A stretch of DNA of 35,327 nt from a virus. A program made the translations under genes and the position numbers. The stretch spans positions 1 to 35,327 of IMG/VR virus record IMGVR_UViG_3300027522_000013; one strand, 5' to 3'. The notes below the pieces were generated by a model that was not told the origin of the DNA, did not search any database, and saw only the letters and a program-made list of their open reading frames with translations. Positions 7,209 through 35,132 of this stretch are shown here, one piece after another; position 1 is the first letter of the stretch; each line of letters starts with the position of its first letter.

Positions 7209-9794
7209 ATGGCAACAAAAATAGTAACTAAGAACAGTAGTACTGGCGGTAGCGCACCTTCAGCAAGTGATCTTGTACAAGGCGAGTTAGCGGTTAACGT
7301 CACGGATAAGCGTTTGTATACTGAGAATGCTTCAGGCGCTATTGTCGAGCTAGGTACTAATCCTGCAGGCGCTGTAACAATGGCGAGTACTCTAGCTGTT
7401 TCAGGTGTTGTAACAGCCAACGCAGACGTAACCTTTGCTAATGGCGCAGATATCATCACGGCTTCAGCAGGAACAAGCAACTTCCGCGCAGGTGTCAACG
7501 CAGGTAACAGTATTGCAAGCGGTGGTAATTATAATGTTGTCGTGGGCGATGAGGCAGGTACTGCGCTTACTACTGGTGATGAGAACGTAGCTATTGGGTA
7601 TGCGGCTTTAGATAATTCTGATGTAGGTTCTTTTAATACAGGCATTGGAAAGTCTGCTTTAGGCAATGATTCAAAAGGCTCAAGAAGCACAGCGGTGGGT
7701 AACTCTGCACTGCAAACTCAAAACTTTACTTCAGCCACTAATGCTTATAACTCAGCCTTTGGTTTCAACGCAGGTGGCGCAGTAACCACAGGCACAGACA
7801 ATACCATCATTGGTGGCCTAGCAGGGGATGCCGCTACTACAGCGGCAGGTATTACAGTTGTAGGCAAGAGTGCAGGTAGTGCAATAACAACAGGTGGAGA
7901 CAACACAGCTATAGGTAAGCAAGCGTTAAAGTCTACTACTACAGGTACATCTAACGTAGCTGTGGGTAAAGATGCCTTAGAGACGGCTACTACTGCAAGT
8001 AATAACACTGCGGTTGGTTTTAAGGCTCTTGAGGCAAACACCACAGGCGCAGGTAATACCGCAGTGGGTGCAATAGCTTTAGACGCAAATACCACCTCAG
8101 ATGACAATACGGCAGTTGGTTACGCCGCATTAACTACAAACACTACAGGTTCTAATAATACGGCAGTTGGAAGAAGTGCTTTAGCACTAACAACTACAGG
8201 TTCAGATAACACTGCTGTGGGTCGTATAGCGTTAGACGATAATACAACGGGTGCAAACAATACGGCAGTTGGTTCTTCAGCTTTAACCGCAAACACCACA
8301 GGCGCACAAAACGTAGCTAGTGGTACTCTTGCTTTAGCACAGAATACTACAGCAAATGATAATACCGCAGTAGGTTATCAGGCATTAACAACAAACAGTA
8401 CAGGAGCATCTAATACTGCCATAGGTAAAAATTCTTTAGCAAACAACACTACTGCCGCTAACAATACAGCAGTGGGCTTTAACTCTTTAGGCGCAAACTC
8501 CACAGGCGCAGAAAACACGGCGATGGGTGCTGAAGCTGGTGATGCAATTACTACTGGCGCAGAGAATGTTGCCGTTGGTTATAGTGCTTTATCAAACACA
8601 ACCACAGCTAGTTTTAACACCGCAGTAGGTAAGTCCTCTTTAGGCTCAAATACTACAGGGGCTAACAATACAGCAGTTGGTAAATCAGCAGGAGCCGCAA
8701 ACACCACAGGCACATATAACACATCAGTGGGTTCATTAGCTTTAGAGAGTACAACAACGGGTATTTCAAATACTGCGGTGGGTGGACAGGCACTACAAAC
8801 CAACACCACTGGCGACTACAACGTGGCTATGGGAGTCAATGCACTTGATAAGAATACTACAGCAAATAACAATACAGGTATAGGCGCGGGAGCTTTAGCC
8901 GCAAACACCACAGGTGCTAATAACGTAGCAGTCGGCACTGATGCTTTAGACGCAAACACCACTGCGGATAATAATACTGCAGTTGGTTATGGTTCTTTAG
9001 GCCTAAACACCACAGGCACAGCAAACGTAGCAATGGGCTTTGGAGCGTTAGATGCTAACACCACAGCCTCTAACAACACAGCCTTGGGTTTTAACGCTTT
9101 AACCACTAACATAACAGGCGCTAACAACACTGCTGTTGGAACATTCGCTTTGCAGACAGCGACAGGTTCAGGGAATATTGCCGTGGGTATGGACGCAGGA
9201 GACTCCGTAACTAGTGGACAGTTTAATGTATTGCTTGGAGAGAACGCGGCTAGTGCCACTACAAACCTTACAACGGGTACTGGTAATTGTTTAGTTGGTT
9301 ATCATAGCTACACAACGGCGGCTTCTTCGGACTATGCAAACGGGTTTGGGTTTAGTGTTGGGGCAGAAGCGGGGTACACAACAGTTGGACAGGGCGTCGC
9401 AGATATCAGAGCCGCACACGGTAACGTAACATGGGCAACAGTATCTGACGAACGCTACAAGAAAGACATTGTAGACTCTACAGCAGGTTTGTCTTTCATT
9501 AATGCTCTACAGCCTCGTACCTTCAAGTACAAGAACCTTGGCGAACTACCTGAAACCTTTAATGCTTATAAAGCTGACTCTACCAAAGTCTTTAAAAACT
9601 CTGACACCAACCACGGCTTTATAGCCCAAGAAATCAAAGCGGCTATAGATGCTGACAGTAGCATTAAAGATGGCTTTAGACTTTGGGACGACAGAGAAGA
9701 TGGATCACAGGAAGTAGCAGAAGCCGCATTAATACCAATCTTGGTAAAAGCAATACAAGAACTCACCGCACGAATCACAACCCTAGAAGGATAA
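7209..9794 (+). CDS. Tail fibre with YadA-head-like repeats and S74 chaperone domain
   Basis: The 861-residue protein has three parts. Residues 1-100 are a docking region (SASDLVQGELAVNVTDKRLYTE) seen in many marine phage fibres. Residues 109-682 hold about 34 repeats of roughly 17 residues built on NTAVGxxAL...NTTGxN, matching the left-handed beta-roll head of YadA-type trimeric adhesins. The C-terminus (from about 735) is an intramolecular chaperone of the endosialidase/peptidase S74 kind, with SDERYKKDI (predicted cleavage Ser 746) and GFIAQEIKAAI. The chaperone would trimerise the fibre and then cut itself off. It is probably the main host-recognition fibre. Confidence 0.85.
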   Translation: MATKIVTKNSSTGGSAPSASDLVQGELAVNVTDKRLYTENASGAIVELGTNPAGAVTMASTLAVSGVVTANADVTFANGADIITASAGTSNFRAGVNAGNSIASGGNYNVVVGDEAGTALTTGDENVAIGYAALDNSDVGSFNTGIGKSALGNDSKGSRSTAVGNSALQTQNFTSATNAYNSAFGFNAGGAVTTGTDNTIIGGLAGDAATTAAGITVVGKSAGSAITTGGDNTAIGKQALKSTTTGTSNVAVGKDALETATTASNNTAVGFKALEANTTGAGNTAVGAIALDANTTSDDNTAVGYAALTTNTTGSNNTAVGRSALALTTTGSDNTAVGRIALDDNTTGANNTAVGSSALTANTTGAQNVASGTLALAQNTTANDNTAVGYQALTTNSTGASNTAIGKNSLANNTTAANNTAVGFNSLGANSTGAENTAMGAEAGDAITTGAENVAVGYSALSNTTTASFNTAVGKSSLGSNTTGANNTAVGKSAGAANTTGTYNTSVGSLALESTTTGISNTAVGGQALQTNTTGDYNVAMGVNALDKNTTANNNTGIGAGALAANTTGANNVAVGTDALDANTTADNNTAVGYGSLGLNTTGTANVAMGFGALDANTTASNNTALGFNALTTNITGANNTAVGTFALQTATGSGNIAVGMDAGDSVTSGQFNVLLGENAASATTNLTTGTGNCLVGYHSYTTAASSDYANGFGFSVGAEAGYTTVGQGVADIRAAHGNVTWATVSDERYKKDIVDSTAGLSFINALQPRTFKYKNLGELPETFNAYKADSTKVFKNSDTNHGFIAQEIKAAIDADSSIKDGFRLWDDREDGSQEVAEAALIPILVKAIQELTARITTLEG
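7533..9255 (+). repeat. About 34 diverged 51-bp coding repeats (YadA-head-like)
   Basis: The repeats encode units of about 17 residues starting N-T-A-V-G. They are diverged at DNA level, so they are old or selected, but stretches such as AACACCACAGGCGC recur and could recombine to change fibre length. Confidence 0.85.
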
Positions 9795-27720: not shown

Positions 27721-29448
27721 TTAGTGGGTGTCTGCCCATGTGTCTCCGACTTTGTAGTCACCAGCGAGAGGGCAGTTGAGGTTGTAGTAAGTCCCTGCGG
27801 CTTGCATACAGCTGGTTGCAAGTCTCCCAAAGACATCTGCTTTTCCTGCTCTAACTTCAGTTTGGATTTCATCATGTATATTCCCTATAAAGTTATAGTC
27901 TATACCCCATAGTATAGCATATTCATTAAGTAAACACAACGCTTTCTTCATTACAATAGCACCTGATGACTGCAATAAAGTATTCAATGCCGCGTGTGCT
28001 GATCGTACATAGACCCTTCGCTTATCCAATCCAAGAACATAGCCTCTTCCAGCCGCCACTCCAACTCGTTCTCGTAGGCTTGCAAGAGCTGGCGTATTTC
28101 TAAGGAACTCTTCTTTAAGTCTCTTACCATCACGCTTAGTTCCTCCAACGATACTTCCGATTTTCTCGTCACCAGCCCCATACAAGAAAGCGTAGATGAA
28201 AGTCTTTGAAAGATCTCTAGTTTCAAGGCCAGCAGCCAACTGATTTGCCGTGTGAATGTCTCCGTTGAGTATTTCATTAGTGTATCCCTCGTCATTCATG
28301 TAATGAGCCAGCATTCGCAGCTCAAGTCCGCTTGCATCCATACCTACCAACTTGTATCCCTCTGGCACAATCCACACATCTCTGCACTCTCTGCCATAAG
28401 GTGATTTAATTGCTGGAATCTGGCCCATGTTAGGACTAGAGTGTGTCATGCGTCCCGTTACTGCCCCATTGGGGTTGACGTACCCATGTACTCTACCGTC
28501 CTTCTTAACCGCCTCTATCCAGCTCTGAACCTGTGCGATACGCTTCTGTATCATAAGGTACTCGCCTATCAATACCGCCTGTGGTATACCCTTAACTTCC
28601 CTAAGGACTGACTCGTCAACAATGGCCTGTCCTTTCTCAGTAAACTGCTTAGGTTTCCAGCCAAAGTACTGTAAGTGTCTGCCTATCTGTTGTCGTGACC
28701 CTAGGTTAAACATAGGGAAGTCAATGCGGCTAAAGGGTGCTACCGCTGTTTCCCATTGCTCTCCTAGGAACTTGAGTCCAACGACACTAATCTCGCCATC
28801 TTTCTTAATCTTAGGTGTAACTTGTTTGATGAATGTAGGCAATGGCTTGAATACCTCGTGTACCTTATCCTCAAGGTCGTACTTCTTCTCCTTAAGCTCT
28901 GCGAGTAATAAAAAACATTTCTCTTGATCTAAGAGCCATCCTGTTTTAATTTGCTTTGATACAATAGCTTGTACTTGGTGTTCAAGATCAATGCTTTCAG
29001 CGCCAAAATCTCTAAGCTCCTGAAGTAGTCTATTGTACACCAGCGTATTAACTCTAACATCCTGTACACAATACTCCACCATATCCTGCGAGAAATTATC
29101 CCAATCACTGTAATCACCTTTCGGTTGGTTTAATAGCGAACCCCAGTTCTCTAAGGAATGTCCACCGTCCCTTGATGGGTTAGCTAAACGTGATAGCACT
29201 AGGGTGTCCGTAATCTTACACTTGCTAAAATCAGTACCTAATAATCTCTCCAACACTGGTATGTCATAGCCAATTATATTATGGCCTATCACTTCACAGT
29301 TATCAAAGCCTAGAAGCCACTCATTGAAGTCAAACAAACTGAAGCCGTGAAACTCAAAGAACTCTTCAGTGCCTACAATGTGAGCAACGATACACCACAC
29401 CCTATCAGGGTTTAAACCGTTAGCCTCTATGTCAAATACTATTTTCAT
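27721..29448 (-). CDS. DNA polymerase, family A (T7 gp5-like)
   Basis: The replicative polymerase has 575 residues. The N-terminal 3'-5' exonuclease has FDIEANG (Asp 6, Glu 8), GHNIIGYD (Asp 62) and YCVQD (Asp 130). The polymerase part has motif A GMDASGLELR (Asp 371), motif B RDLSKTFIYAFLYG (Lys 415) and motif C IHDE (525-527). The residue equivalent to E. coli Phe762 / T7 Tyr526 is Tyr 419, as in T7. It is shorter than T7's 704 residues, probably in the thumb/thioredoxin-loop region. It overlaps the helicase stop by one base (TAATG). Confidence 0.95.
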   Translation of the reverse strand: MKIVFDIEANGLNPDRVWCIVAHIVGTEEFFEFHGFSLFDFNEWLLGFDNCEVIGHNIIGYDIPVLERLLGTDFSKCKITDTLVLSRLANPSRDGGHSLENWGSLLNQPKGDYSDWDNFSQDMVEYCVQDVRVNTLVYNRLLQELRDFGAESIDLEHQVQAIVSKQIKTGWLLDQEKCFLLLAELKEKKYDLEDKVHEVFKPLPTFIKQVTPKIKKDGEISVVGLKFLGEQWETAVAPFSRIDFPMFNLGSRQQIGRHLQYFGWKPKQFTEKGQAIVDESVLREVKGIPQAVLIGEYLMIQKRIAQVQSWIEAVKKDGRVHGYVNPNGAVTGRMTHSSPNMGQIPAIKSPYGRECRDVWIVPEGYKLVGMDASGLELRMLAHYMNDEGYTNEILNGDIHTANQLAAGLETRDLSKTFIYAFLYGAGDEKIGSIVGGTKRDGKRLKEEFLRNTPALASLRERVGVAAGRGYVLGLDKRRVYVRSAHAALNTLLQSSGAIVMKKALCLLNEYAILWGIDYNFIGNIHDEIQTEVRAGKADVFGRLATSCMQAAGTYYNLNCPLAGDYKVGDTWADTH

Positions 29449-31539: not shown

Positions 31540-31568
31540 ATTATATCATCAGTTATCACTCTTGTCAA
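31540..31568 (-). promoter_or_regulatory. Consensus sigma-70 promoter for the replication operon
   Basis: On the minus strand TTGACA (31563-31568) and TATAAT (31540-31545) are separated by 17 bp, a perfect consensus. Transcription would run leftward through SSB, primase-helicase, polymerase and on to ribonucleotide reductase. The -35 lies inside the end of the preceding small gene. Confidence 0.88.
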
Positions 31569-31734
31569 ATATATATTCATCCTTATTGTATGACTCATTA
31601 AAACCATCCATAAGGGCATCGTTTGAGTGTCTGGCACATTCTCCACATAGGTCTAGGTATGCGCCAGTATTAGCATCTTTCTTTTTTAGTTCATATTCAC
31701 TCATTATCACATCACATGCTTTACATCTACTCAT
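31549..31734 (-). CDS. Small zinc-finger-like protein (61 aa)
   Basis: The product has two cysteine pairs, CKAC (residues 4-7) and CGEC (30-33), spaced as in a small treble-clef or DksA-like zinc finger, and an acidic tail. ATG 31734 overlaps the previous stop (ATGA) and has an AAGGAGAAG site. The end of the gene overlaps the replication promoter. A regulatory or host-takeover role is plausible but unproven. Confidence 0.7.
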   Translation of the reverse strand: MSRCKACDVIMSEYELKKKDANTGAYLDLCGECARHSNDALMDGFNESYNKDEYIFDKSDN

Positions 31735-31964
31735 AACTCTTCTCCTTTACCAAAAGCAAGCATATACTGCTCACGCATTACATTAATGTCCTGAGCATAG
31801 TATTCATCCCTAACCTGCCTAGTGACTCTCTGTGTCAGTTCAGATAGCGACATACAGTATACTTGATACTCTACTAGCTCGTCTACCATATCCTGCGCTG
31901 TAGGCTCTATCCAATCATTGCAAGGCTCGTCATATCCTATTAGACCCTCTTTAATCCTGCTCAC
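31731..31964 (-). CDS. Small early protein (77 aa), unknown
   Basis: GTG 31964 has a GGGAG site 7-8 bases upstream and gives MSRIKEGLIGYDEPCNDWIEPTAQ and on to an ATGA overlap with the next gene. A TTG at 31979 is the alternative start. The protein is acidic and helical. No family is recognised; its place in the coupled row of early genes supports that it is real. Confidence 0.6.
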   Translation of the reverse strand: MSRIKEGLIGYDEPCNDWIEPTAQDMVDELVEYQVYCMSLSELTQRVTRQVRDEYYAQDINVMREQYMLAFGKGEEL

Positions 31965-32148
31965 TGTATACTCTCCCAAAAGTTATTAAAATGAACGGTA
32001 AGTATAGCAGTATGCCCTCAAAAGGTAAAGCACTTACTTCTTCCGTTTCCTTGTTCATTGTCCAAACTGCGCGACTATCTGCAAACTCAAGGAACAAGCC
32101 GCACCCGTTAATCAGTTCTATTGATAAGTGTCTACCGAATATAATCAT
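31951..32148 (-). CDS. Small early membrane protein (65 aa), unknown
   Basis: ATG 32148 has a perfect AAGGAGAAG site and overlaps the previous stop (ATGA). The product is MIIFGRHLSIELINGCGLFL, a polar middle, then one likely membrane segment near the C-terminus (GILLYLPFILITFGRVY). No homologue is known to me. Confidence 0.65.
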   Translation of the reverse strand: MIIFGRHLSIELINGCGLFLEFADSRAVWTMNKETEEVSALPFEGILLYLPFILITFGRVYSEQD

Positions 32149-32315
32149 TCTACTTCTCCTTTTACTGGTAGTGCTTGTTTAATATCAGTAGCACACTCCG
32201 CTTCCAAGACTAACGGTTTACATAACTCCTTGCACCATTGCTTAAGCGTTAACCTTGTATTCATCCAAGATTTCCACATCTGTTTTTCGTCCATCGTATC
32301 TATTAATCTAGCCAT
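32145..32315 (-). CDS. Small early protein (56 aa), unknown
   Basis: The start MARLIDTMDEKQMWKSWMN is followed by a Cys-containing basic helix (QWCKELCKP) and ends in GEVE with TGA overlapping the next ATG. It overlaps the preceding gene by 8 bp and has a GAGGAG site. The evidence is coupling, ribosome site and open frame; there is no recognised domain. Confidence 0.55.
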   Translation of the reverse strand: MARLIDTMDEKQMWKSWMNTRLTLKQWCKELCKPLVLEAECATDIKQALPVKGEVE

Positions 32316-32463
32316 CTTTCTCTTGCTCCTCTTTACGTTTAATGTCTGCGAGTGCCATTGCTATCTCATAAGGTTGCATAGGCGGGTAATCATCTTCGTC
32401 AATCAGCTCCTCATCACCATGCAAATAGTCCTCACAACTGCCATTCCATCCACCTATGTTCAT
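32308..32463 (-). CDS. Small acidic early protein (51 aa), unknown
   Basis: ATG 32463 follows a GGGAG site and the stop of the preceding gene overlaps it (ATGA). The product has a Gly/Trp-rich start (MNIGGWNGSC), an acidic middle (DEELIDEDDYPP) and a charged helix (IKRKEEQEKDG). Small acidic early phage proteins often bind host enzymes, but nothing specific is visible here. Confidence 0.55.
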   Translation of the reverse strand: MNIGGWNGSCEDYLHGDEELIDEDDYPPMQPYEIAMALADIKRKEEQEKDG

Positions 32464-32624
32464 ACATCACTCCCTAAAATAACCACTATAAATGTATACC
32501 ATACCATTGTCAACAACAGGCCACCGCAACCTAATGCCGTCCAGCCAATAGCCGCAACAAGAAACTGCTCTCTCTTTTGCTTACTTAACTCGCGTTTTGT
32601 TAGTATCTTTCTCGCATTATTCAT
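32460..32624 (-). CDS. Small early membrane protein (54 aa), unknown
   Basis: ATG 32624 has a GAGGTG site. A basic N-terminal third (RKILTKRELSKQKREQ) precedes hydrophobic segments from residue 21 to 50 (FLVAAIGWTALGCGG, LLLTMVWYTFIVVIL). The arrangement predicts an inner-membrane protein with its basic end in the cytoplasm. It is coupled to the next gene by an ATGA overlap. Confidence 0.6.
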   Translation of the reverse strand: MNNARKILTKRELSKQKREQFLVAAIGWTALGCGGLLLTMVWYTFIVVILGSDV

Positions 32625-32688
32625 AATACACCTCGTATATGGCCCTGTATTGCGTTCTAAGAGCCTTTAGCTTAATTTATGGGCTACC

Positions 32689-32808
32689 CTATTGGTTACC
32701 CTTATACTTGCTTAGACGTTCATTCTGTATAATTAGCTCACTTTGCCAGACTGCCCAACATGCGCCAATTAATACCAATGCGGCCATTAATTCCATTATT
32801 ATTTGCAT
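32689..32808 (-). CDS. Tiny membrane protein (39 aa), unknown
   Basis: The frame gives a single membrane segment (IIMELMAALVLIGACWAVW) followed by a polar helix (QSELIIQNERLSKYKGNQ). The ribosome site is weak (GAGAG). It lies 10 bp after the stop of the preceding tiny gene and is separated from the next by 64 bp with no frame I can support. Confidence 0.45.
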   Translation of the reverse strand: MQIIMELMAALVLIGACWAVWQSELIIQNERLSKYKGNQ

Positions 32809-32818
32809 AATTTAGCTC

Positions 32819-32911
32819 TCATAATAGATTGACTCCCAATAGATAGACAAGCGTTATTGTACACCATGTACAAATTGCAACTGTCAACCAATCCATCTTG
32901 CGCTTGTTCAT
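32819..32911 (-). CDS. Tiny membrane protein (30 aa), unknown
   Basis: ATG 32911 overlaps the stop of the Gp88-like gene (ATGA) and has a GAGGTG site. The product is MNKRKMDWLTVAICTWCTI followed by more hydrophobic residues, a basic head plus one membrane segment. It is very short, but the coupling and ribosome site favour a real gene. Confidence 0.5.
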   Translation of the reverse strand: MNKRKMDWLTVAICTWCTITLVYLLGVNLL

Positions 32912-33588
32912 TGTGTCACCTCTATAGTCTGTATTAGGTTTTTAATTTGTTTGAGCATACTAACGCCATGAGCGGGATATGCAACATGTTTTACTGTTTT
33001 ATTCCAACATGCTCTACATGGTCCACATTTGCCCTCGCGTGTACCAGCCTCACACAACGTCATTACAGGCGTTAGATACTCGCGGCTGGGTATAATTGTG
33101 CTAGTGTTGGCCGCTTGTATCAATTCACCTGTCACGCTATCGCTGGACAATCTAACAACTACATTCGGTAGCTTTTGCATATCAGCAAGTACAGGCATAA
33201 ACTTTTTAAACTTATGCATACGCGTTGGTAGCCAATGATTGCACCAAGGAGTAGCGGCCATAACTGACAATATCTTTTTAGCCAACCGTAGGTCGTAAAC
33301 ATCGCCTGAATCAAACCACCTAAAATAGCGATCATTGTCTAATTCCGCAACCATTACAGCTACCCAGTCCGCTTGTTGCCAGTCCTCGCGATTATGCTCC
33401 CTTGGTGCTTTTACGTTGGGAAACCTATAGTTACCTGTAGTGGCATAGCAACCCTTACAAGCTGGCACTAGATCGCCCTTGCTATCCTTAGACGCTGGAC
33501 AAGTATCAAGTGCTTGCAATGACCATGAACGACAAGGCATCTTGCTGGGTCTGCTAAATTTTGGTTGTGCATTCATGAATTTAACCAT
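32908..33588 (-). CDS. Gp88-like cysteine-rich phage protein, possibly radical-SAM-like
   Basis: ATG 33588 with a GGAGG site gives 226 residues. Features are SWSLQALDTCPAS, then CKGCYATTGNYRFPNV, a central FRWFDSGDVYDL, VVRLSSDS, and the C-terminal CGPCRACWNKTVKHVAYPAHG. The pattern C...CxxCYA early, SGD in the middle and CxxCxxCW late matches the 'gene product 88' family of mycobacteriophages, and more loosely the Gp37/Gp68 phage proteins. The clustered cysteines suggest an iron-sulfur or zinc site on a barrel fold; function is unknown. It lies at the upstream end of the early leftward row. Confidence 0.65.
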   Translation of the reverse strand: MVKFMNAQPKFSRPSKMPCRSWSLQALDTCPASKDSKGDLVPACKGCYATTGNYRFPNVKAPREHNREDWQQADWVAVMVAELDNDRYFRWFDSGDVYDLRLAKKILSVMAATPWCNHWLPTRMHKFKKFMPVLADMQKLPNVVVRLSSDSVTGELIQAANTSTIIPSREYLTPVMTLCEAGTREGKCGPCRACWNKTVKHVAYPAHGVSMLKQIKNLIQTIEVTQ

Positions 33589-33589
33589 A

Positions 33590-33931
33590 TTATGCCTCCT
33601 CCTCTGCTCTCGAACCCGTATCAATTAACCATTCTGCTTTTGTTTCTTTAGCTTTAATATACGCATCGTGCCATGTGGCTAAACCCTCTGTTACTCTGGG
33701 ATCACGCAACACCACCTCGCGGCTCCGTTTAACAAAGGCTTCACCTACAAGTTTCTTTGCAAATTCTAGGACCGCATTGCCTTTCTTTTCATAATCTTCG
33801 CCTATAGACCAACAAGATGAATCTTTACCGCCTGAGGTATCTATATAAGCTAAAGTCTTCCAGTGTTGTGATTCGGTTGATAATTTTAAATCTTCGAGCC
33901 TACCTTGTATTAGTATCTCTAGCTTATTCAT
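33590..33931 (-). CDS. First leftward early protein (113 aa), unknown
   Basis: This gene is nearest the leftward promoter and so would be the first phage product made from that transcript. ATG 33931 has an AAAGGTAG site. The product is helical and charged (MNKLEILIQGRLEDLKLSTE ... WLIDTGSRAEEEA), with no recognised motif. First-position early proteins often act on host transcription or defences; that is context only. Confidence 0.65.
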   Translation of the reverse strand: MNKLEILIQGRLEDLKLSTESQHWKTLAYIDTSGGKDSSCWSIGEDYEKKGNAVLEFAKKLVGEAFVKRSREVVLRDPRVTEGLATWHDAYIKAKETKAEWLIDTGSRAEEEA

Positions 33932-33997
33932 AATGACTACCTTTAGTTGATAATGATTCTCATTTACAAGGGTTCCTTTCCCTTGCCTCTTGCACCC

Positions 33998-34026
33998 ATT
34001 ATAGAGCCTTATCAGCTACATGCTAA
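33998..34026 (-). promoter_or_regulatory. Leftward early promoter (TTAGCA-17-TATAAT)
   Basis: On the minus strand the -10 TATAAT (33998-34003) and a four-of-six -35 TTAGCA (34021-34026) are 17 bp apart, about 67 bp before the first early gene. It would transcribe the micro-gene row. Confidence 0.6.
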
Positions 34027-34259: not shown

Positions 34260-34341
34260 CCGCATGTATAACCTGTGTATAACTTATGCACAACATGCGG
34301 ACCCTGTGGGTAACTATGTGCAAAACCTGTGGATAACTTTG
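34260..34341. other. DnaA-box cluster, probable replication origin core
   Basis: Boxes matching TTATNCACA occur at 34274-34282 (minus), 34284-34292 (plus) and 34328-34336 (minus), with a one-mismatch copy at 34305-34313 (minus). The first two form a 19-bp near-palindrome, TGTGTATAACTTATGCACA, enclosed by an 8-bp inverted repeat CCGCATGT/ACATGCGG (34260-34267, 34293-34300). The minus-facing boxes share the wider context CCTGTGNRTAACT at 34272, 34303 and 34326, like iterons. Confidence 0.6.
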
Positions 34342-34544: not shown

Positions 34545-34573
34545 TTGACTTAAGGGCTTAGATATGATATAAT
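34545..34573 (+). promoter_or_regulatory. Rightward sigma-70 promoter (TTGACT-17-TATAAT)
   Basis: TTGACT (34545-34550) and TATAAT (34568-34573) are 17 bp apart. It faces the small terminase gene, 142 bp away, and would start the rightward (packaging/lysis/structural) transcript. Confidence 0.85.
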
Positions 34574-34715: not shown

Positions 34716-35132
34716 TTGAGTAGCGAAAAGCAATCTAAAGAGGGTCAGTCCGCGAAGCGGATTGGGCGGCCAAAAAAGAAAGATGTTGTGTCAAAGACAA
34801 CAGGCTCCCGTAACAAGGTAGGTCGTCCTAAAGGTGATGCTTCAATCATCAACGACTATAAAGCTAGGATGCTTGCTTCCCCTAAGTCTAGGAAGGTCTT
34901 GGATTCTATATTGTCAGCAGCCTTGGACGATGATCATAAGAATCAAGCAGCGGCTTGGAAGTTGTGTATGGATAGATTACTGCCCGTTAGCTACTTTGAG
35001 AAAGATAAGGCAACTGGTGGAAAGAGTGCAATCAATATATCAATCACAGGCGTGGGTGGAGAAACTACTATCATCTCAGGCGGTAACGAACAAGAACCCA
35101 TTGAAGGGGACTACACTGATGTCGAGCATTGA
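34716..35132 (+). CDS. terS: Probable terminase small subunit with two AT-hooks
   Basis: TTG 34716, behind an AAGGGA site, gives 138 residues. Two AT-hook motifs (IGRPKKK about residues 16-22 and VGRPKGD about 36-42) precede a helical region (NDYKARMLASPKSRKVLDSILSAAL, AAWKLCMDRLLP) and a beta-like tail (INISITGVGGE). A DNA-binding head plus oligomerising helices, one gene before the large terminase apart from the endolysin, fits the small packaging subunit that recognises viral DNA. It overlaps the endolysin start by 14 bp. Confidence 0.75.
   Translation: MSSEKQSKEGQSAKRIGRPKKKDVVSKTTGSRNKVGRPKGDASIINDYKARMLASPKSRKVLDSILSAALDDDHKNQAAAWKLCMDRLLPVSYFEKDKATGGKSAINISITGVGGETTIISGGNEQEPIEGDYTDVEH

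What the first reader, a model, noticed from the sequence alone, without database searches (positions are those of the whole stretch)
31549..33931. Row of tiny, translationally coupled early genes rich in membrane peptides
Ten leftward genes, eight of them 30-77 codons, are chained mostly by ATGA or short overlaps with good ribosome sites. Four have one predicted membrane segment (32819, 32689, 32460, 31951) and one has a zinc-finger-like cysteine pattern. Their position, first from the early promoter, is where host-takeover and anti-defence genes sit. None resembles a known family to me, so this is the likeliest place for undescribed functions.
Basis: partly seen in the sequence, partly recalled or inferred. 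Interest (0 to 1): 0.65.

Follow-up and report, generated by a model that had tools for sequence, protein, structure and literature searches.

The report
Phage early operon of small genes
A marine bacterial virus carries, just behind its predicted first promoter, ten tightly packed and mostly tiny genes that comparison with relatives shows to be real; most have no known function, and in related viruses the same stretch holds genes that protect the virus from bacterial defences, so it is a likely store of new host-takeover and anti-defence tools.

Summary
The ten-gene row is real. Dinucleotide shuffles never gave comparable chained ORFs (86% covered; shuffle maximum 40%). Against diverged relatives the eight small genes show pN/pS 0.12-0.40 in frame; pooled, the shifted frames give above 1. 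Corrections: the 226-aa gene belongs to a known family (GP88, PF17338), and the 65-codon 'membrane peptide' is predicted all-beta, so three membrane peptides remain, not four.

The row runs from a host-type sigma-70 promoter (34026-33998) to a perfect extended -10 promoter (31568-31540) serving SSB/primase. Genes 8, (9) and 10 are a core beside SSB; genes 1-7 are an exchangeable cassette. In relatives that stretch holds an ArdC anti-restriction gene beside GP88 and a C5 DNA methyltransferase between genes 8 and 10. Position and company support 'early host-takeover/anti-defence island'; no gene's function is shown.

Extra find: the operon's leader carries a Fur-box palindrome (TGAGAATCATTATCA, 33948-33962), conserved among relatives with different first genes and recurring upstream of GP88 in unrelated phages, suggesting that early expression is tied to host iron regulation or titrates Fur. 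DnaA boxes lie further upstream.

Verdict: new members of a known kind of locus, with several undescribed gene families and one unexpected operator.

The parts
33998..34026 (-). predicted early sigma-70 promoter TTAGCA-N17-TATAAT
   Evidence: 10/12 match; TATAATGGG(T/C)GCAAGA block conserved in relatives with different first genes
33948..33962 (.). Fur-box-like palindrome TGAGAATCATTATCA in the operon leader, 35 nt after the -10 box
   Evidence: only match in the window to TGAKAATNATTMTCA with up to 1 mismatch, 0.05 expected; recurs in leaders of relatives
33590..33931 (-). g1, 113 aa, first gene of the operon; homologues also first after the leader in L083-L087
   Evidence: pN/pS 0.46
32908..33588 (-). 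g2, 226 aa, GP88 family (PF17338)
   Evidence: E 2.5e-31; 281 related stretches in IMG/VR; pN/pS 0.20; barrel-like model, pLDDT 71
32819..32911 (-). g3, 30 aa, single predicted membrane span
   Evidence: intact homologue in L112 at 76% DNA identity, pN/pS 0.24 in frame
32689..32808 (-). g4, 39 aa, single span followed by a SELII motif
   Evidence: homologues in L112, L114, L115, pN/pS 0.12-0.20; SEL[IM]I shared with other small span peptides of the group
32460..32624 (-). g5, 54 aa, basic N-terminus plus one span
   Evidence: family in 39 of the fetched loci; pN/pS 0.12-0.32
32308..32463 (-). g6, 51 aa, acidic, WNGSCED(W/Y)LHGDE motif
   Evidence: family in 56 of the fetched loci; pN/pS 0.18-0.28
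32145..32315 (-). g7, 56 aa
   Evidence: 23 matching loci, most in phages with a different neighbourhood; pN/pS 0.40 against L112
31951..32148 (-). g8, 65 aa, conserved core gene, predicted all-beta (not a membrane peptide)
   Evidence: 366 related stretches in IMG/VR; model pLDDT 88; pN/pS 0.12
31731..31964 (-). g9, 77 aa, GTG start, conserved core gene
   Evidence: family in 51 of the fetched loci; pN/pS 0.28
31549..31734 (-). g10, 61 aa, CxxC...CxxC zinc-ribbon-like core gene
   Evidence: four invariant Cys in 27 sequences; family in 101 of the fetched loci; pN/pS 0.16
31540..31568 (-). second promoter TTGACA-N17(TG)-TATAAT at the end of g10, serving SSB/primase/polymerase
   Evidence: 12/12 match; 12/12 at the same place in 21 of 59 distinct relatives, 38 of 59 at 10/12 or better, against 13 of 272 control segments

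Best explanation
This is the first (early) transcription unit of a marine podovirus-like phage. Host RNA polymerase starts at 34026-33998 and makes one mRNA whose ten genes are translated by coupled re-initiation. Genes 1-7 are an exchangeable accessory cassette of small effectors: GP88, three single-span inner-membrane peptides and small acidic or soluble proteins. Most are likely to blunt host defences or alter host physiology in the first minutes of infection. Genes 8-10 are a more constant core next to the replication genes, probably small binding proteins that act on host machinery or on the switch to replication. Shown: genes real, under selection, modular, bounded by two conserved promoter-like sites, and sharing the place with ArdC and DNA methyltransferase genes in relatives. 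Inferred: early timing, coupling and every molecular function.
For: Purifying selection with frame controls (pooled pN/pS 0.25 and 0.21 in frame, 1.1-1.8 out of frame); ORF chaining far beyond chance; gene order kept with genes inserted or lost (L112 lacks GP88 but has g3, two extra genes, g4-g7 in order); conserved bounding promoters; anti-restriction or methylation genes in the same stretch; over-representation of span peptides; early-to-middle transcription of the distant GP88 homologue HTVC027P gp33 (PMC12753301).
Against: No gene of this window matches a characterised anti-defence family; the PADLOC scan was empty too, but that library describes defence, so it says little. Known anti-restriction genes are a small minority among 129 sampled neighbours. 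Other genes of that stretch (ThyX, pyrimidine-dimer glycosylase, PAPS reductase) point to nucleotide metabolism or DNA modification. No expression data exist for this phage, and its host is unknown.
Confidence: 0.6

Rival explanations
1. An early host-takeover and regulatory operon without a special anti-defence role: the small proteins redirect host transcription, replication or membrane physiology, and the methyltransferase/ArdC neighbours are incidental passengers of a variable region.
For: The most conserved genes (g8, g10) sit beside SSB in most fetched relatives; g10 has a zinc-ribbon-like pattern typical of small nucleic-acid or protein binders; the authors of PMC12753301 suggest that unknown early genes of HTVC027P help start phage transcription.
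Against: ArdC appears next to GP88 on different sides in two unrelated phages, and a methyltransferase lies inside the core of three loci, more than a passenger view would lead one to expect.
Confidence: 0.28
2. The span peptides act late or in lysis (holin- or exclusion-like) and only happen to lie in the early operon.
For: g3-g5 are short single-span peptides.
Against: They lie between early-operon genes with no promoter of their own apart from an internal TTGACA-17-TATAGT match inside g5, and their relatives lie in the same stretch next to the replication genes.
Confidence: 0.07
3. The smallest frames are chance ORFs that are not translated.
For: Frames of 30 and 39 codons are common by chance.
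Against: Shuffles and in-frame selection with intact homologues.
Confidence: 0.02

Closest known systems
GP88 family, Pfam PF17338 (phrog_1392), unknown function
   Same: g2 matches at E 2.5e-31 over residues 28-208 of the longer frame, above the gathering score; homologues in Acinetobacter phage AM24, pelagiphages HTVC027P and HTVC033P, Roseobacter phages and Caulobacter phage Seuss
   Different: The annotated phages examined show unnamed small genes beside GP88; a homologue of g8 was not found in any phage record and g10 only at E 0.03 or worse
Early (class I) region of T7-like phages
   Same: Small, tightly packed genes read first from host-type promoters, ahead of the replication genes; anti-restriction genes in the homologous stretch of relatives
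   Different: No Ocr, kinase or single-subunit RNA polymerase was recognised here; replication genes have a second host-type promoter of their own; divergent layout with DnaA boxes (comparison from own knowledge, not tested gene by gene)
HTVC103P-type / HMO-2011-type marine podoviruses
   Same: Closest isolate primases (50% identity, HTVC115P and HTVC103P) and the longest DNA-level polymerase matches; portal distantly like HMO-2011-type portals (21-26%)
   Different: 35-kb record against about 54-kb genomes; g8 has no match in 50,697 phage records
ArdC anti-restriction protein / polyvalent proteins (PMC5512222)
   Same: An ArdC-N plus MPTase protein occupies the early stretch beside GP88 in L040
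   Different: Not present in this window

Membership tests
GP88 (PF17338) | Profile score above the curated cut-off | tested here: met
   109.7 bits against 24.4
Radical SAM enzymes (considered for GP88) | CxxxCxxC motif | tested here: not met
   Invariant cysteines are C30-x13-C44-x2-C47 and C179, C188-x2-C191-x2-C194; no CxxxCxxC
Radical SAM enzymes (considered for GP88) | (Beta/alpha) barrel fold | tested here: inconclusive
   Model pLDDT 71; SuiB Z 4.7 (rmsd 6.1, 152 aligned) and lipoyl synthase Z 4.3 (rmsd 6.2, 159 aligned) lie among unrelated TIM barrels; Foldseek best E 0.088
Zinc-ribbon proteins (g10) | Two CxxC knuckles | tested here: met
   C4, C7, C30, C33 invariant in 27 sequences
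Zinc-ribbon proteins (g10) | Zinc binding | not testable with these tools
   needs purified protein
Single-span membrane peptides (g3, g4, g5) | One hydrophobic span of helix length | tested here: met
   17-residue Kyte-Doolittle maxima 2.1-2.2
Single-span membrane peptides (g8) | One hydrophobic helix | tested here: not met
   Predicted four beta strands, pLDDT 88; no helix
Known anti-defence families (window genes) | Match to a characterised family | tested here: not met
   None in Pfam or PHROGs; the PADLOC library holds defence, not counter-defence, models
T7-like early region | Single-subunit phage RNA polymerase gene | tested here: inconclusive
   PF00940 gave no match in the record, but its control rang nowhere
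Fur operator | Match to the palindromic Fur-box consensus (consensus from own knowledge) | tested here: met
   Exact match to TGAKAATNATTMTCA
Fur operator | Iron-dependent Fur binding | not testable with these tools
   host unknown; needs footprinting

The most novel reading that the evidence does not exclude
The early operon of these marine phages is wired to the host's iron regulator: a Fur box in the leader lets Fe-Fur hold or time early expression, or titrates Fur away from its targets, so that a cassette of small host-takeover and anti-defence genes is switched by host iron status. The same palindrome recurs in noncoding control regions of unrelated phages, including the terminal repeat of T5 and upstream of GP88 in a spring-water phage.
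Probability: 0.35. Interest if true: 0.75.

Novelty: new member of a known kind. Interest (0 to 1): 0.52.

Why it matters
The row offers several undescribed small gene families with solid evidence of being real, a defined promoter pair and a clear comparison set, in a stretch where relatives keep anti-restriction genes. That makes a focused screen for new counter-defence or host-shutoff proteins practical. If the Fur-box reading holds, it would link the iron status of marine bacteria to the very first step of phage gene expression, which is directly testable in model phages such as T5.

Tried and rejected
Chance ORFs: rejected by shuffles and frame controls. Membrane peptide for g8: rejected by structure prediction. 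GP88 as a canonical radical SAM enzyme: motif absent; fold search undecided. Solved-structure sequence search with the GP88 profile: nothing. Fold search of g8 against viral models and, as a second look, PDB: no significant match; PAS/LOV sheets at Z about 4 are tied with unrelated rows and were not used. Genome scan for GP88: a single 18.5-kb contig binned with a Halieaceae MAG, too little to name a host. Literature search for GP88/PF17338 mostly returned progranulin. Literature searches for Fur boxes in phage early promoters gave nothing that describes this (open-access library only).

Full report
What the window is. A 35.3-kb IMG/VR virus record. Rightward genes match terminase large subunit, portal, scaffold, major head protein and tail or fibre proteins; leftward genes match ribonucleotide reductase, nucleotide kinase, endonuclease, exonuclease and primase/helicase, and 27721-29448 gives the DNA polymerase matches in known phages. 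The primase is closest among isolates to pelagiphages HTVC115P and HTVC103P, at 50% identity.

Observation. The ten frames exist as described. Their chaining is far beyond chance: SD-led chained ORFs of at least 30 codons cover 86% of the g3-g10 strand against a shuffle mean of 10% and maximum of 40% in 1000 shuffles. The 238-aa frame should start at ATG 33588, right after the preceding stop and behind GAGGAGG.

Are the smallest genes real? A separate contig, L112 (IMG/VR 3300028045_000919), lacks GP88 but holds g3, two extra genes, g4, g5, g6 and g7 in the same order with intact frames; L114 and L115 hold g4, g5, g6, g8 and g9, L115 also g10. Counting substitutions on aligned codons gives pooled pN/pS 0.25 (L112) and 0.21 (L115) in frame, against 1.13-1.78 in the two shifted frames. 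Per gene the in-frame values are 0.12-0.40. g1 gives 0.46 and GP88 0.20 against other relatives. A further IMG/VR record, L002, carries the whole cluster at 99-100% protein identity.

Structure of the locus. Between GP88 and SSB, relatives differ greatly. Clustering 2114 predicted ORFs from the fetched loci gave 474 clusters, 216 of them singletons. The g8 family is in 120 loci, g10 in 101, g6 in 56, g9 in 51 and g5 in 39; these counts are biased because many loci were fetched by GP88 or g8. g8-(g9)-g10-SSB is the usual order. So g8-g10 is a core and g1-g7 a cassette. A perfect extended -10 promoter overlaps the end of g10 and is at the same place in many relatives (38 of 59 at 10/12 or better, against 13 of 272 control segments). 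The replication genes therefore seem to have their own host-type promoter.

What the cassette may do. GP88 is a known family of unknown function. Its AlphaFold model (pLDDT 71) is barrel-like, and it has two sets of invariant cysteines; a metal-cluster enzyme is plausible but not shown, and the canonical radical SAM motif is absent. HTVC027P gp33, a 33% identical homologue by tblastn, is reported as highly expressed at 6-9 h in infected SAR11, function unknown, and all early genes of that phage are of unknown function (PMC12753301). In L040 an ArdC-N/MPTase protein ends just upstream of GP88; in MW202796 an antirestriction protein follows GP88 directly; in L154 a C5 methyltransferase (Pfam E 9.8e-51) sits between g8 and g10, with homologous frames in L158 and L174. 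Among 129 sampled neighbour proteins other hits include pentapeptide repeat, PAPS reductase, ThyX, pyrimidine-dimer glycosylase, MarR and DUF932, so the stretch is not purely anti-defence. Small families with a predicted span number 32 of 154 against 11.7 from residue shuffles; this null is only a rough guide. g4 ends its span with SELII, and other span peptides of these phages carry SEL[IM]ID at the same point.

Control region. The leader block TATAATGGG(T/C)GCAAGA(G/A)(G/A)CAAGGGA...CTTGTAA...AAT(G/A)AGAATCATTATCAACTAAAGG is shared by relatives whose first genes differ (L201, L203, L207, L209, L210, window). Those five were fetched by part of this motif, so they show conservation of the flanks, not frequency. 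The palindrome is the sole match in the window (0.05 expected). In 1.4 Mb of fetched loci there were nine distinct exact matches, all outside predicted genes, none in a shuffle; leaving out motif-fetched loci, exact matches remain in the window and its near-identical records, L083, L032, L064 and MW202796, with one-mismatch boxes in L040, L050, L084/L085 and L174. Most loci with a DnaA array but a more distant leader lack the box (6 of 33 have it), so it is not universal in the group. A scan of IMG/VR for TATAAT followed by the box gave 104 stretches; among those listed as new loci, 65 boxes were outside predicted genes and the rest inside. BLAST of the leader against known phages hit, in all 60 sampled records, only the box portion, including the T5 and phi92 terminal repeats; single E-values are weak (0.09-4), and it is the shared position that speaks. 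Reading it as a Fur operator rests on the consensus as I know it; no binding was tested.

DnaA boxes. The same intergenic region has four TTA(T/C)NCACA sites within 34274-34336, and 41 locus strands (some of them overlapping records) have three or more boxes within 120 nt, often spaced 11, 22 or 31-33 nt. This suggests use or titration of host DnaA; it was not pursued.

Verdict. The kind of locus is known; the families and the operator are the new parts.

Noticed in passing
window 33948-33962: Fur-box-like palindrome TGAGAATCATTATCA in the early leader, conserved in near relatives and recurring upstream of GP88 in unrelated phages and in T5/phi92 terminal repeats.
   Followed up: partly
window 34274-34336: Cluster of DnaA-box-like sites (TTATCCACA, TTACCCACA, TTATACACA, TTATGCACA); relatives have phased arrays at 11/22/31-33 nt spacing at the same place: possible origin or DnaA titration.
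   Followed up: partly
window 33966-33986: CAAGGG-loop-CCCTTG stem predicted near the 5' end of the early mRNA, present in most relatives with the leader block.
   Followed up: no
window 32485-32513: Internal TTGACA-N17-TATAGT (11/12) inside g5, upstream of g6.
   Followed up: no
window 34545-34573: Extended -10 promoter TTGACT-N17(TG)-TATAAT on the + strand ahead of the rightward 138-aa frame at 34716.
   Followed up: no
L154:2164-3279, L158:3148-4263, L174:3021-4136: C5 DNA methyltransferase frame inserted between g8 and g10, overlapping the g8 stop.
   Followed up: yes
L308:980-994 (T5 record 9579-9593): Exact Fur-box-like palindrome inside depositor-annotated direct repeat C / palindromes G and H of the T5 left terminal repeat, with a one-mismatch copy 35 nt on.
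   Followed up: partly
window 32689-32808 and L085:5655-5777, L091:2934-3056, L089:5154-5258: Otherwise unlike single-span peptides share SEL[IM]I right after the span.
   Followed up: partly
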